DNA of 64,000 bases, from NCBI RefSeq assembly GCF_019551435.1, contig NZ_CP080544.1, positions 1,955,001 to 2,019,000 on the forward strand, read 5' to 3'. Under the pieces are notes generated by a model. It saw only the letters and a program-made list of their open reading frames with translations, did no database searches and had not been told where the DNA came from. This document shows, piece after piece, positions 37,898-42,888 of the stretch. Both the position numbers and the translations under genes were made by a program. The DNA is from Lysobacter soyae (GTDB taxonomy: Bacteria > Pseudomonadota > Gammaproteobacteria > Xanthomonadales > Xanthomonadaceae). The first letter of the stretch is position 1; every line of letters starts with the position of its first letter.

Positions 37898-37925
37898 TAA
37901 TGGGGCCTTCGTTTGCCCTTTCAAG
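37898..37925 (-). promoter_or_regulatory. Sigma-32 heat-shock promoter of groESL
   Basis: On the minus strand CTTGAAA (37925-37919), a 13-nt spacer and CCCCATTA (37905-37898) match the RpoH consensus CTTGAAA-N11-16-CCCCATNT almost fully. The start of transcription would be near 37890, upstream of the CIRCE element. Confidence 0.9.
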
Positions 37926-37974
37926 ACCCTCAGGAAAAGAATGTTTTCCCGACCGCGCACCGGCCGGATTTCCT

Positions 37975-38004
37975 TTGGGCAGGGCGCCGATCGGGTGCTA
38001 GGCT
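37975..38004 (+). promoter_or_regulatory. Candidate recQ promoter
   Basis: TTGGGC (37975-37980), 18-nt spacer, TAGGCT (37999-38004). The -10 ends 7 nt before ATG 38012, so the transcript may be leaderless. Confidence 0.45.
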
Positions 38005-38011
38005 CCTCGCC

Positions 38012-39835
38012 ATGAAATCCGTTCAAGACGCCGCCAACGACTCCGCGCTAGATGTGTTGCGCAGTGTTTGGGGCTATCAGACCTTCCGGGGGCGCCAGCA
38101 CGCCATCGTCAACCATGTCGCCGCCGGCCTCGATGCCTTGGTGCTGATGCCGACGGGTGGCGGAAAGTCACTGTGCTATCAAGTCCCAGCCCTCCTGCGT
38201 CCGGGCTGCGCCATCGTGGTCTCTCCGCTGATTGCCTTGATGCAGGATCAGGTCGAAGCGCTGCACCAGCTTGGCATTGAAGCGGCGTATTTGAATTCAA
38301 GTTTGCCGGCCGGCGAGGCGTATGCCGTTGAGCAGCGTTTTGTGTCGGGCGATTTGAAACTGTTGTACGTGGCACCCGAACGCTTGTTGACGCCGCGTTT
38401 CTTGGACCTTGTCGCGCGCGCGCCGGTGTCTTTGTTCGCGATTGACGAAGCCCATTGCGTGTCGCAATGGGGGCACGATTTCAGGCCCGAGTATCGACAG
38501 CTGACGATGCTGCACAAACGTTGGCCGTCAATTCCACGCATCGCGCTGACCGCCACCGCCGATCCCGCCACACAAGAGGAAATCATCGAACGCTTGCAAT
38601 TGGATGATGCCGAGCAGTTCTCCAGCAGCTTCGACCGACCCAACATCCGCTACACCATTGTCGAGAAAAACGATGCACGCCGGCAGTTGCTCGACTTTCT
38701 CGACGGGCATGCCGGTGAGTCCGGCATCGTCTATGCGATGTCCCGGAAAAAAGTCGAAGACACGGCCGCGTTTTTGCGAAGCAAAGGCTATAACGCCTTG
38801 GCGTATCACGCCGGCATGGATACGGAAACGCGCGCGTTACATCAGCGCCGGTTTTTGCGCGAAGACGGCATCATCATGGCGGCGACCATCGCCTTCGGAA
38901 TGGGCATCGACAAGCCGGATGTCCGATTTGTCGCCCACGTGGATCTGCCGAAATCGGTCGAGGGCTATTACCAAGAAACCGGTCGTGCCGGCCGCGACGG
39001 CGAACCAGCCGAAGCGTGGATGGCCTATGGCTTGGGTGATGTCGTCAATTTGCGCAAGATGATCGAAAGCTCCGAAGCGGATGATTCGCGCAAATGGATG
39101 GAGCGTCGCAAGCTCGACAGTCTATTGGGCTACTGCGAAACGCTGGGCTGCCGTCGCCAACGCTTGCTGGCAAGCTTCGGCGAAGTGATGGCCAATCCTT
39201 GCGGGAATTGCGACAACTGCCTCAATCCGCCGGAAGCTTGGGATGCCACCGAACCCGCACGGATGGCACTGAGTTGTGTCTACCGTTGCGGTCAACGCTT
39301 CGGTGCCTCCCACCTGATTGATGTGCTGCGGGGCGAACGTACTGAACGCATCCTCCAGTTGGGTCATGACACCGTCAGCACCTTCGCCATCGGTCGGGAT
39401 ATCGATTCGAATACTTGGCGCAGTATTTTTCGCCAATTGGTATCGCACGGATATCTGGAGACCGACACACATGGCGGTCTGCGGTTGGCAGAGGCTTCAC
39501 GTACGCTCTTGAAGGGCGAACAAACGCTGCAATTGCGCCGCGAGCAAGCGCGAGTCCGCCGTCAGCGACGTGCCGCACTGTCGAACCCGAACTCGCCGGA
39601 TGCCTGGATGTCCGCCGATGCCCGCCTCTTATTTGATGCGCTGCGCGCATTGAGAACCGAGTTGGCGCGCGCCCAGAGTGTGCCGCCCTACGTGATCTTC
39701 CACGACAAGACCCTGCGGGAAATTGCCACCTCCCGGCCCGAAAGCCTGTCTGCCCTAGGGACCATCGAGGGCATCGGTCCGAGAAAATTGGCGGAATATG
39801 GCAATCAGGTGCTCGACCTGATTTCGGCGAATTGA
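38012..39835 (+). CDS. recQ: ATP-dependent DNA helicase RecQ
   Basis: A 607-residue 3'-5' helicase of the RecF repair pathway. Walker [20 protein letters not shown] box [19 protein letters not shown], the RecQ zinc motif with four Cys (YCETLGC... NPCGNCDNC), a winged-helix region, and a C-terminal HRDC domain ending [12 protein letters not shown]. Full family length. ATG 38012 is used instead of the open frame start at 37913, since the latter would cover the groESL promoter and shows no similarity. Divergent from groES. Confidence 0.95.
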
Positions 39836-39901
39836 ACGCGAAGGTGAATGAACCATCAGGACGCTGGCAGGTCGAAGCCTGCGACGCGTGAAGCGCCTCC
39901 T

Positions 39902-39913: not shown

Positions 39914-42280
39914 ATGAACCGAATTGCACGTTTGAGTTGGAATCCGCGCCGCGACAACGGGCGCGCCACCGGTGTCTTGCACTGGGTTTGTGCCTTGCTT
40001 TTGGCATTTTCGGCCGCCGGCGTGTCGGCGCAGACGACGCCGCAGGATTTGCCGCCGGTCGACAGTGTTTTCAAACTTCAGACGGAAGCCGGCACTGATG
40101 GCAGCGTTCATCTTCGCTGGACGATTGCGCCTGGCTTTTATCTTTACAAGCACCAATTCAAGTTCAGCACCACCGCACCCGGCGTGACCTTAGGCAATGC
40201 CAACATTCCGGCCGGCAAGAAACATCATGATGAGTTCTTCGGCGACGTCGAGACGTATCGCCAACAAGTGGCCATCACGATTCCGGTGACAGCCCCCGCG
40301 GGCACCGCCGCCATCCCGATTCGGGTGAAGTATCAAGGCTGCGCCGATGTCGGTGTCTGTTATCCGCCGCAAACGCGCAACCTCACCGCGAGCCTCGGCC
40401 CCACCAAGGAACCCCAGGCGGATTCGGGTTTCCAAGCGCTAGCCGGAAAATTCGGCGCCACCGCGAATCCGCTATCGGCGGCATCCGGAAAAGCGGCACC
40501 TCTCCCGCCAGCGCAAGCCTTCAAGGCGGATGCCATTGCTGATGGCGGTGATCGCTTGCTGATCCGTTTCATTCCGGCGCCGGGCTATTACCTGTACAAA
40601 AATCAAACGCGTTTCAATTTGAAAGCCGAGGGCATCAGCATCAGCGCGGTGCAATGGCCGAAAGCCACGCTGCACCGTGACGAACATTTCGGCAATGTGC
40701 CGGTGTACTTCAACGAAATCGATGTGCCGGTGTTGCTCAAGCGCAACCACCCGCGCGCGACGCAGGTTGCGCTGCAGATCGAATTGCAAGGCTGCCAAGA
40801 CAACGGCATTTGCTACGAGCCGATGCAGCGAAGCTTCACGATTGCCCTGCCTGCTGCCGGCGAAACCACGCAAACGAAGGCCGATGAAACAACGGTGGAG
40901 ACGGCCGCACCCGCAGTCGATGCCGCGACCGCCACGGCCGCATTGCCGGTGAAGGTCGAAACCGCACCGACGGCAGCCGACACCAAGCCAACGACCGATG
41001 CGGCGCCGCAGCCTGCCACGTCACCGTCGGCCTTGGAGAGTCTCTCGATTTGGAAGGCCGTGTTGCTCGCCCTGCTCGGCGGGCTCATTCTCAACCTCAT
41101 GCCCTGCGTGTTGCCGGTGTTGTCCATGAAGGCGGTGTCGATTGCGCAAGCAGGCAACGATCGTGCGGCGTTGCGCCAGCACGTCTTCGCCTATGCCAGC
41201 GGTGTCATTTTGAGCATGTTGGCTTTGGGTGGACTGGTGTTGGCGCTGCGCGGATTGGCATCTCAGGGCGGCCTGGCTTGGGGCTTCCAGATGCAACAGC
41301 CGGCGGTGGTCTTGGTCTTGGCACTGTTCGTCCTCGCATTCGGTTTGTCGCTTTCGGGCGTTTGGCAGGCCAACTTTGTGTTGCCGAATGCCGCGCAGCG
41401 CGCGGTCACCGCGCAGGGACTGAAAGGCGATTTCGCCACCGGCGTGTTGGCGGTGGTTTTGGCCACGCCGTGTACCGCGCCGTTTATGGGCGCAGCGTTG
41501 GGCTATGCGTTTTTCGCGCCGCCCCTGCAAGCGGCGATGGTGTTCGTTGCGCTTGGCGTCGGCTTGGCATTGCCTTTCCTGCTCATCGCCTGGATTCCCG
41601 CGCTTGGCCGTTTGATTCCGAAGCCCGGCGCCTGGACCGACACCTTTAAGAAGGTCATGGCGATTCCGATGTATGCCACCGTCGCGTGGTTGGTTTGGCT
41701 GTTGTTCCAACAACGTGGGGGTCTCGCGGTTGCGGTGTTTGCGCTCGCCGCCATCGGCGTCGTCTGGGTGTTGCGCGATGCAGGCAGGCCGCATGCTTCA
41801 ACGCTTCGCCGCTGGTTGCCGCGCTTGCTCGCACTCGTCGTGGTTGCAGGATTGGCATTCACTTTGCAAAGCATGCGCTCGCAAAAATCGTTGGCATCGG
41901 ACTCAGCCGTACACGTTCTTCCGAATGGCTTGAAGGCCGAACCGTATTCGGCGCAACGTCTGCTGGCGCTGCGCACCGAGGGGCGCGTTGTATTTGTCGA
42001 TGTCACCGCCGATTGGTGCATCACCTGCAAGGTGAATGAACGCGCGGTGTTGTTTACGCCCGCGTTCAAAACGATGTTCGAACAGCACAACGCGGTGTAC
42101 ATGATTGCCGACAACACCGATCCCGATGAAGCCATCGGCGCGTTCCTGCGCACGCACAAAGCGGTGGGTCTGCCGCTGTACGTGGTCTATCCGGCGAATG
42201 GCGGCGAAGGTCGCGTACTCCCCACCGTTCTGACTCAAGGCATGGTGGCGGATGCGCTGACCGCGGCGGGCGCACGATGA
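39914..42280 (+). CDS. dsbD: Thiol:disulfide interchange protein DsbD with two N-terminal sensor domains
   Basis: A 788-residue inner-membrane protein that carries electrons from cytosolic thioredoxin to periplasmic DsbC/DsbG-type partners. It has a signal peptide ending VSA, then two nDsbD-like domains in tandem, each with its own redox pair: GCADVGVC (Cys143/149) and GCQDNGIC (Cys294/300). A Thr/Ala/Pro-rich linker (~315-375) leads to the eight-helix membrane domain with Cys398 (MPCVLP) and Cys520 (ATPCTAP), and a C-terminal thioredoxin domain with DWCITC (Cys702/705). E. coli DsbD has one N-terminal domain and 565 residues. The 3' end overlaps the TlpA-like gene by 4 bp. Start chosen at the ATG behind TACAAT. 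Confidence 0.93.
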   Translation: MNRIARLSWNPRRDNGRATGVLHWVCALLLAFSAAGVSAQTTPQDLPPVDSVFKLQTEAGTDGSVHLRWTIAPGFYLYKHQFKFSTTAPGVTLGNANIPAGKKHHDEFFGDVETYRQQVAITIPVTAPAGTAAIPIRVKYQGCADVGVCYPPQTRNLTASLGPTKEPQADSGFQALAGKFGATANPLSAASGKAAPLPPAQAFKADAIADGGDRLLIRFIPAPGYYLYKNQTRFNLKAEGISISAVQWPKATLHRDEHFGNVPVYFNEIDVPVLLKRNHPRATQVALQIELQGCQDNGICYEPMQRSFTIALPAAGETTQTKADETTVETAAPAVDAATATAALPVKVETAPTAADTKPTTDAAPQPATSPSALESLSIWKAVLLALLGGLILNLMPCVLPVLSMKAVSIAQAGNDRAALRQHVFAYASGVILSMLALGGLVLALRGLASQGGLAWGFQMQQPAVVLVLALFVLAFGLSLSGVWQANFVLPNAAQRAVTAQGLKGDFATGVLAVVLATPCTAPFMGAALGYAFFAPPLQAAMVFVALGVGLALPFLLIAWIPALGRLIPKPGAWTDTFKKVMAIPMYATVAWLVWLLFQQRGGLAVAVFALAAIGVVWVLRDAGRPHASTLRRWLPRLLALVVVAGLAFTLQSMRSQKSLASDSAVHVLPNGLKAEPYSAQRLLALRTEGRVVFVDVTADWCITCKVNERAVLFTPAFKTMFEQHNAVYMIADNTDPDEAIGAFLRTHKAVGLPLYVVYPANGGEGRVLPTVLTQGMVADALTAAGAR

Positions 42281-42888
42281 AAGACAGCGGCTACGGCCAC
42301 CTAAAGGTGGTGATGGCGGCCGTTGCCGGTGCCGTCATTGCCCTGCTCGCCGCCGTCTTGGTCGATCCCAAACCGTGGCTGCTCGAATCGAGTGCCGGTC
42401 AACGCATGTTGCAAGCGTTTCTGGATTGGCGTGCGCCAGTGGTGCCCGGTGCGCACCGTGTGCGCGAAGGCGACACCGTGCGTGACCTCTCCTTGTTCAC
42501 GCTGGATGGCAAACCGGCCGGGCTTGACGCTCATTTGGGCAAAGGCTTTACGGTCGTCAACCTTTGGGCCACCTGGTGCGGCCCTTGCTTGAAGGAGCTG
42601 CCTGCGCTGGAAGCCTTCGCCAACCGACGCCCGAACGCAAAGCTCATCGCCATTGGTATGGACGAACATGCGGCGGTCAAAGATTTCCTGTCGCGACGCC
42701 CGAGCAAGATTCCGCAATTGTTGGCGGCCGAACCGCCCGCGTTTACGCCCGGGCAATTGGGTAATCCGGCCGGTGTCCTGCCCTATTCGGTGTTGCTCGA
42801 TGCCAAAGGTCGGGTGATTGCACGCAGAACCGGAGTTTTCCACTCGGCAGAAGACATCACGCGGTGGGTGGAATCGGCCACGCGTTGA
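42277..42888 (+). CDS. TlpA-family thioredoxin-like protein
   Basis: A 203-residue protein with an N-terminal membrane anchor ([19 protein letters not shown]) and a periplasmic thioredoxin fold with active site WATWCGPC and cis-Pro region [10 protein letters not shown]. It is coupled to dsbD by an ATGA overlap, so it is a likely DsbD client that receives electrons in the periplasm, perhaps for cytochrome c maturation or a peroxide pathway. No ccm genes lie nearby. Confidence 0.9.

What the first reader, a model, noticed from the sequence alone, without database searches (positions are those of the whole stretch)
39914..42280. DsbD with a doubled N-terminal redox domain
Two nDsbD-like domains in a row each keep the Cys-X5-Cys pair (143/149 and 294/300). 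E. coli DsbD has only one. The second domain may serve a different client, such as the TlpA-like protein encoded by the coupled downstream gene, or speed transfer.
Basis: partly seen in the sequence, partly recalled or inferred. Interest (0 to 1): 0.5.

Follow-up and report, generated by a model that had tools for sequence, protein, structure and literature searches.

The report
Reductase DsbD with two donor domains
This bacterial membrane enzyme, which passes reducing power to proteins outside the inner membrane, has two intact-looking delivery domains where E. coli has one; many related bacteria share this layout and keep both domains' active cysteines, so the doubling is probably useful, although its purpose is untested.

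Summary
The gene encodes DsbD with two DsbD_N (nDsbD) domains, each with Cys-X5-Cys, then the usual membrane and thioredoxin parts. The second domain folds as a true nDsbD (AlphaFold2 pLDDT 93.4; nDsbD chains at Z 13.8-17.2). The layout is common: 57 of 61 genomes of the order, 31 of 87 of the class. All 143 tandem proteins read keep all four cysteines although their two domains share a median 36% identity (90 proteins), so the second pair looks selected.

First and second domains form recognisable types. In the order the first keeps the cap Phe that shields the cysteines (60 of 79), the second rarely (2 of 79; mostly His or Glu); outside the order the contrast is weaker. Best reading, inferred: two parallel, differently gated outlets of one reductase. 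A widespread variant of DsbD that my literature searches did not find described.

The parts
39914..42280 (+). dsbD gene, 788 aa from this ATG (810 aa from the upstream ATG at 39848)
   Evidence: NCBIfam PRK00293.1 protein-disulfide reductase DsbD 342 bits, cut-off 330
40046..40384 (+). D1, first nDsbD domain (residues 45-157)
   Evidence: Pfam DsbD_N E 5.2e-34; solved nDsbD E 7.3e-21
40235..40237 (+). D1 cap residue Phe108, equivalent of E. coli nDsbD F70 (motif DEFFG)
   Evidence: alignments; coordinate computed from the residue number
40340..40360 (+). D1 redox pair Cys143-X5-Cys149
   Evidence: conserved in 143 of 143 tandem proteins
40385..40492 (+). linker between D1 and D2
   Evidence: pLDDT under 50 at model residues 133-145 and 147-152
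40493..40843 (+). D2, second, membrane-proximal nDsbD domain
   Evidence: Pfam DsbD_N E 1.2e-27; AlphaFold2 pLDDT 93.4; Z 13.8-17.2 with solved nDsbD entries
40685..40687 (+). D2 cap residue His258 at the place of F70 (motif DEHFG)
   Evidence: alignments; coordinate computed from the residue number
40793..40813 (+). D2 redox pair Cys294-X5-Cys300
   Evidence: conserved in 143 of 143 tandem proteins
41051..41695 (+). DsbD_TM membrane domain with Cys398 and Cys520
   Evidence: Pfam PF02683 E 1.7e-15; the only match to this family over the cut-off in the genome
41948..42196 (+). C-terminal thioredoxin-like domain (cDsbD) with Cys702-X2-Cys705
   Evidence: Pfam Thioredoxin_7 E 2.6e-12; E. coli and other cDsbD chains at weak E
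42277..42888 (+). TlpA/ResA-like thioredoxin-fold gene with WCGPC, overlapping the dsbD stop; neighbour, not shown to depend on the second domain

Best explanation
This is the cell's ordinary DsbD, carrying two redox-active nDsbD domains in series on the chain. Electrons go from cytoplasmic thioredoxin through the membrane cysteines (C398/C520) to the thioredoxin-like domain (C702/C705), as in E. coli DsbD (established for E. coli; inferred here). I think that domain then reduces either nDsbD domain, so that D1 and D2 are two parallel outlets to periplasmic clients (DsbC, CcmG, TlpA-like proteins), tuned differently around the active site: D1 keeps the Phe cap that shuts off the reduced cysteines, D2 of this order carries His or Glu there and so may be more open or differently gated. 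Shown: two nDsbD folds, strict conservation of both cysteine pairs, two recognisable domain types, different cap residues. Inferred: redox activity of each, parallel wiring, the division of clients.
For: Two DsbD_N domains; D2 predicted as nDsbD; the tandem model has two confident domains and a loose linker, pTM 0.50. All four cysteines in 143 of 143 tandem proteins, with a median 36% identity between the two domains of a protein (90 proteins): a spare domain would be expected to lose its pair somewhere. Profiles of D1 and D2 tell held-out domains apart (89 of 90 and 86 of 90; 52 of 53 and 51 of 53 on loci not used for training). The positions that differ most include 70, 76, 78, 100, 106 and 113, close in sequence to the cap and the cysteines. 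Cap Phe: order D1 60 of 79, D2 2 of 79; outside it 47 and 26 of 64. For parallel rather than obligatory serial wiring: single-domain DsbDs exist of either type, 23 of 61 D2-like and 10 of 61 D1-like by more than 7 bits, so either type seems able to do the whole job. The genome has a single DsbD_TM gene, one DsbC and one CcmG over the cut-off, so this one DsbD probably feeds several clients.
Against: No experiment shows that either domain is redox active here. In the evenly drawn class sample the cap contrast is weak: Phe in D1 20 of 31, in D2 12 of 31, sign test p 0.057, and the sign tests ignore relatedness. An aromatic at position 71 is kept in both domains (F in 78 of 89 D1, 84 of 90 D2) and might do the capping. 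A published alignment has F or Y at position 70 in only 53% of 134 sequences (PMC7347389, passage seen), so loss of Phe there is not unusual. A single clean D1/D2 duplication is not supported (8 label changes, p-AU 0.042). The serial relay is not excluded.
Confidence: 0.45

Rival explanations
1. Serial relay: cDsbD reduces D2 only, and D2 passes the electrons to D1, the protected outermost domain that meets the clients. The second domain extends reach into the periplasm.
For: D2 sits where the single nDsbD sits: the NCBIfam DsbD model aligns from residue 188 on, over D2, and the distance from the last nDsbD domain to the first membrane motif is alike in tandem and single proteins (median 49 residues in 85 and in 55). 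D1 keeps the tighter Phe cap in the order, as a final protected donor would.
Against: Single-domain DsbDs of both the D1 and the D2 type exist, so neither task seems exclusive. No precedent for nDsbD to nDsbD transfer appeared in my paper searches.
Confidence: 0.25
2. Dosage: the two domains are equivalent and merely raise the local amount of donor, with drift in the sequence around the cysteines.
For: Both domains keep the same core residues (Y40, Y42, D68, G72, Q101, G102, C103, C109, Y110 in at least 85% of each). Tandem and single states swap often: 21 changes on the tree, at least 9 forced by well supported branches, as expected if the extra domain is dispensable.
Against: The two positions have recognisably different profiles even across families, and the cap contrast in the order is 58 proteins one way and none the other.
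Confidence: 0.2
3. One reading: the second domain is dedicated to the TlpA-like protein encoded next door.
For: The gene overlaps dsbD here and a TlpA-like gene follows 59 of 78 tandem DsbDs with enough sequence, against 23 of 56 single ones. The few tree-independent pairs in which it differs go mostly the expected way.
Against: Many single-domain DsbDs have the same neighbour and 19 of 78 tandem ones do not; the tree-aware test is not significant (p 0.25-1), though it has little power.
Confidence: 0.07

Closest known systems
Escherichia coli DsbD (nDsbD structures 3PFU, 1L6P, 1JPE; complexes 1VRS, 1JZD, 1Z5Y)
   Same: Domain order, cysteine positions in all three parts, nDsbD fold
   Different: Here two nDsbD domains, the second with His at the cap position 70
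Neisseria meningitidis nDsbD (6DPS, 6DNV, 2K0R)
   Same: Best structural matches to the D2 model (Z 17.2 and 17.1 for 6DPS and 6DNV)
   Different: The solved constructs are single domains; whether that DsbD has one domain was not scanned here
ScsB (Proteus mirabilis N-terminal periplasmic domain, 6C29)
   Same: Also a DsbD-like reductase; its periplasmic part is called a tandem immunoglobulin-fold domain in the title of Furlong et al. 2018 (title seen in a reference list only). 6C29 residues 11-137 align with the D2 model at Z 11.2
   Different: Not a close sequence match: absent from the profile search of solved chains with the tandem alignment. As I recall, only one of its two folds carries the redox pair; I did not test that

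Membership tests
DsbD (protein-disulfide reductase) | nDsbD domain with Cys-X5-Cys | tested here: met
   met twice
DsbD (protein-disulfide reductase) | membrane domain of the DsbD_TM family with two cysteines | tested here: met
   PF02683 E 1.7e-15; C398 and C520
DsbD (protein-disulfide reductase) | C-terminal thioredoxin-like domain with CXXC | tested here: met
   Thioredoxin_7 E 2.6e-12; C702/C705
DsbD (protein-disulfide reductase) | curated family model over its cut-off | tested here: met
   PRK00293.1 342 bits, cut-off 330
DsbD (protein-disulfide reductase) | a single nDsbD domain, as in E. coli (typical, not required by the curated model) | tested here: not met
   two stretches of DsbD_N. 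I treat this as a variant feature, since the family model is passed
DsbD (protein-disulfide reductase) | electron transfer to periplasmic clients | not testable with these tools
   needs biochemistry
ScsB | two-fold N-terminal periplasmic part of the ScsB type beside an scsC gene | tested here: inconclusive
   the structural match to 6C29 covers one of its folds; the window's genes next to dsbD are tlpA-like and aroQ-like, and no search for scsC was run
TlpA (downstream neighbour) | curated TlpA model over its cut-off | tested here: not met
   NF047696.1 54.6 bits, cut-off 230; hence 'TlpA-like' only

The most novel reading that the evidence does not exclude
DsbD of this class often runs two separately gated outputs: a shielded Phe-capped D1 and a more open, polar-capped D2, each serving its own clients, kept together by selection on both cysteine pairs; single-domain DsbDs such as that of E. 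coli would then be cut-down forms that kept one or the other type.
Probability: 0.2. Interest if true: 0.6.

Novelty: new variant of a known kind. Interest (0 to 1): 0.38.

Why it matters
Textbook models of reducing power in the bacterial envelope rest on E. coli DsbD, in which one nDsbD domain serves every client. In the window's order nearly every genome sampled has two such domains (57 of 61). If both are active, single-cysteine-pair mutants in these bacteria give a direct way to ask how DsbD chooses between clients, and the natural F70-to-His change gives a ready test of the cap-loop model of nDsbD.

Tried and rejected
Rejected: that the second domain is a degenerate relic (all four cysteines in 143 of 143). 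An early impression that D1 had lost its pair in some relatives was wrong: those D1 have Cys-X6-Cys or Cys-X7-Cys, which my X5 pattern missed. One apparent loss in D2 (L298) was also an artefact of my pattern, which wanted Tyr or Phe after the second Cys. Four genomes of the order lack a tandem in the search: two are cut at a contig end (G378, G411), one has a short frame near a contig end (G401), one is a genuine single (G383).

A simple single duplication at the base was not upheld: domains cluster by position (8 label changes against 21 in shuffles) but one clean split is marginally rejected, p-AU 0.042; L174's two domains are sisters and L056's cluster with singles of its relatives, which suggests some separate duplications or exchange. 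Direction of change between tandem and single was not determined (counts do not depend on the root; that tree is a quick one with long-branch warnings).

Not counted: tandems in the first class search, because only part of its matches were listed. Literature: searches (PMC open-licence papers only) turned up no description of a doubled nDsbD; I saw listings and abstract beginnings, plus passages and the Bioinformatics section of PMC7347389, passages of PMC8900818 and one reference of PMC9675693. Subscription papers are not covered. The Pfam site itself was not consulted and may well list the two-domain architecture.

Full report
What is there. The gene at 39914-42280 encodes a 788-residue protein (810 from an upstream ATG) whose cysteines lie at 26, 143, 149, 294, 300, 398, 520, 702 and 705. 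Pfam finds DsbD_N twice, DsbD_TM and a thioredoxin-like domain; NCBIfam names it protein-disulfide reductase DsbD at 342 bits against a cut-off of 330, aligning best from residue 188, that is over the second N-terminal domain. The two N-terminal domains, D1 and D2, are 33% identical by BLASTP. Each alone matches solved nDsbD.

Is D2 a real nDsbD? AlphaFold2 on D2 with 54 sequences gives mean pLDDT 93.4 and pTM 0.85. The 18 Foldseek matches with E of at most 0.001 are all nDsbD chains; in the VIA-align second look the nDsbD entries score Z 13.8 to 17.2, ScsB's N-terminal part 11.2, and the next rows under 8. The tandem model (75 sequences) has two confident domains, a low-confidence linker and pTM 0.50, so their mutual placement is not fixed.

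How common is it? With the window's own genome counted in, 57 of 61 genomes of the order have two DsbD_N matches in one frame. Of the other four, two are cut by contig ends, one has a short frame near a contig end and one is a true single. In an evenly drawn class sample 31 of 87 genomes do, 81 having any match. In a phylum sample of 150 genomes only 5 do, all of the window's own order. Named relatives with the tandem include Lysobacter, Thermomonas, Luteimonas, Arenimonas, Dokdonella and Glaciecola.

Are both pairs kept? I read 143 tandem proteins: 90 from the first set including the window and 53 more; these include all 57 tandem genomes of the order sample and all 31 of the class sample. 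In all 143 the four cysteines align. Named and unnamed loci may overlap in species, and one genome (G376) contributes two proteins. Spacing is usually X5; in the first set X7 occurs in 7 of 41 order D1, X6 in 6 of 49 D1 and 8 of 49 D2 outside the order. The median identity between the two domains of one protein is 36% in the first 90. Strict conservation at that distance argues that both centres work.

Are the domains different? Profiles built from D1 and from D2 assign held-out domains correctly in 89 of 90 and 86 of 90 cases, and in 52 of 53 and 51 of 53 on loci not used in training. The positions that differ most include 78, 113, 50, 76, 106, 70 and 100 in E. coli numbering, several of them near the cap loop and the cysteines. 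Position 70 is the Phe whose ring packs on Cys109 in E. coli (PMC7347389, passages). In my order set Phe is there in 60 of 79 D1 and 2 of 79 D2 (His 48, Glu 18, Tyr 9, Ser 2); outside it in 47 and 26 of 64. In the even class sample it is 20 and 12 of 31, sign test p 0.057, so the contrast is a property of the order more than of tandems in general. The order set holds named relatives that I assigned by similarity. Position 71 is Phe in most of both domains.

History. On a tree of the membrane and thioredoxin parts, tandem and single states change 21 times, at least 9 of them forced by well supported branches (quick tree, long branches present). Domains cluster by position, but a single clean D1/D2 split is marginally rejected. 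Of 61 single domains, 42 score nearer D2, 18 nearer D1 and one is a tie; 23 and 10 by more than 7 bits; the E. coli domain is near neutral at +2.9 towards D1. So singles do not all derive from one type. I cannot say which state came first.

Neighbourhood. Tandem and single genes often lie in the same block: groEL/groES-like genes on the other strand on one side, and TlpA-like, AroQ-like, AccB- and AccC-like genes on the other. A TlpA-like gene lies within 800 bases downstream of 59 of 78 tandem and 23 of 56 single genes with enough sequence, an AroQ-like gene within 2000 bases of 52 of 78 and 23 of 56. The names groEL, groES, aroQ, accB and accC are my recognition of the window's proteins; only RecQ, DsbD and the TlpA-like protein were run against family models. 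The tree-aware test of tandem state against the TlpA-like neighbour is not significant, but has few informative pairs.

Clients. The genome has one DsbD_TM match, one DsbC_N match and one DsbE/CcmG match over the cut-off, with four weaker thioredoxin-like matches, the TlpA-like neighbour among them, and three DSBA matches. One DsbD therefore probably supplies all reduced periplasmic partners.

Mechanism. I favour two parallel outlets served by one cDsbD, tuned differently at the active-site rim (0.45), over a D2-to-D1 relay (0.25), plain dosage (0.2) and a TlpA-dedicated domain (0.07). The main argument for parallel wiring is that single-domain proteins of either type exist. None of these is shown by experiment.

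Verdict. It is a widespread variant of a well-known enzyme for which I found no functional description in the searches listed under Tried and rejected.

Noticed in passing
L044, L045, L046, L047, L048, L052, L209 and others: D1 of some relatives has Cys-X7-Cys (CHE..PK.C) in place of Cys-X5-Cys while D2 keeps X5; elsewhere in the class X6 forms (CNEP.GVC) occur in either domain.
   Followed up: partly
L208 and L288 (genome G376): One genome carries two separate tandem DsbD genes.
   Followed up: no
37913-39835: A recQ gene stands between the groES-like gene and dsbD; L033, L034 and L041 also have RecQ upstream of dsbD, most other order loci do not show it in the stretch fetched.
   Followed up: no
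genome G000 C1:2106406-2107538 (outside the window): Two weaker DSBA-family matches lie side by side in the window's genome, apart from the main DsbA.
   Followed up: no
order genomes, e.g. G414 C29, G408 C42, G385 C12: Many order genomes hold a second, weaker DsbD_N match in a separate frame of about 700-800 residues, possibly ScsB-like; the window's genome has none.
   Followed up: no
39848 and 39914: Two in-frame ATG codons are possible starts; the hydrophobic stretch after the second looks like a signal peptide (not tested with a predictor).
   Followed up: no
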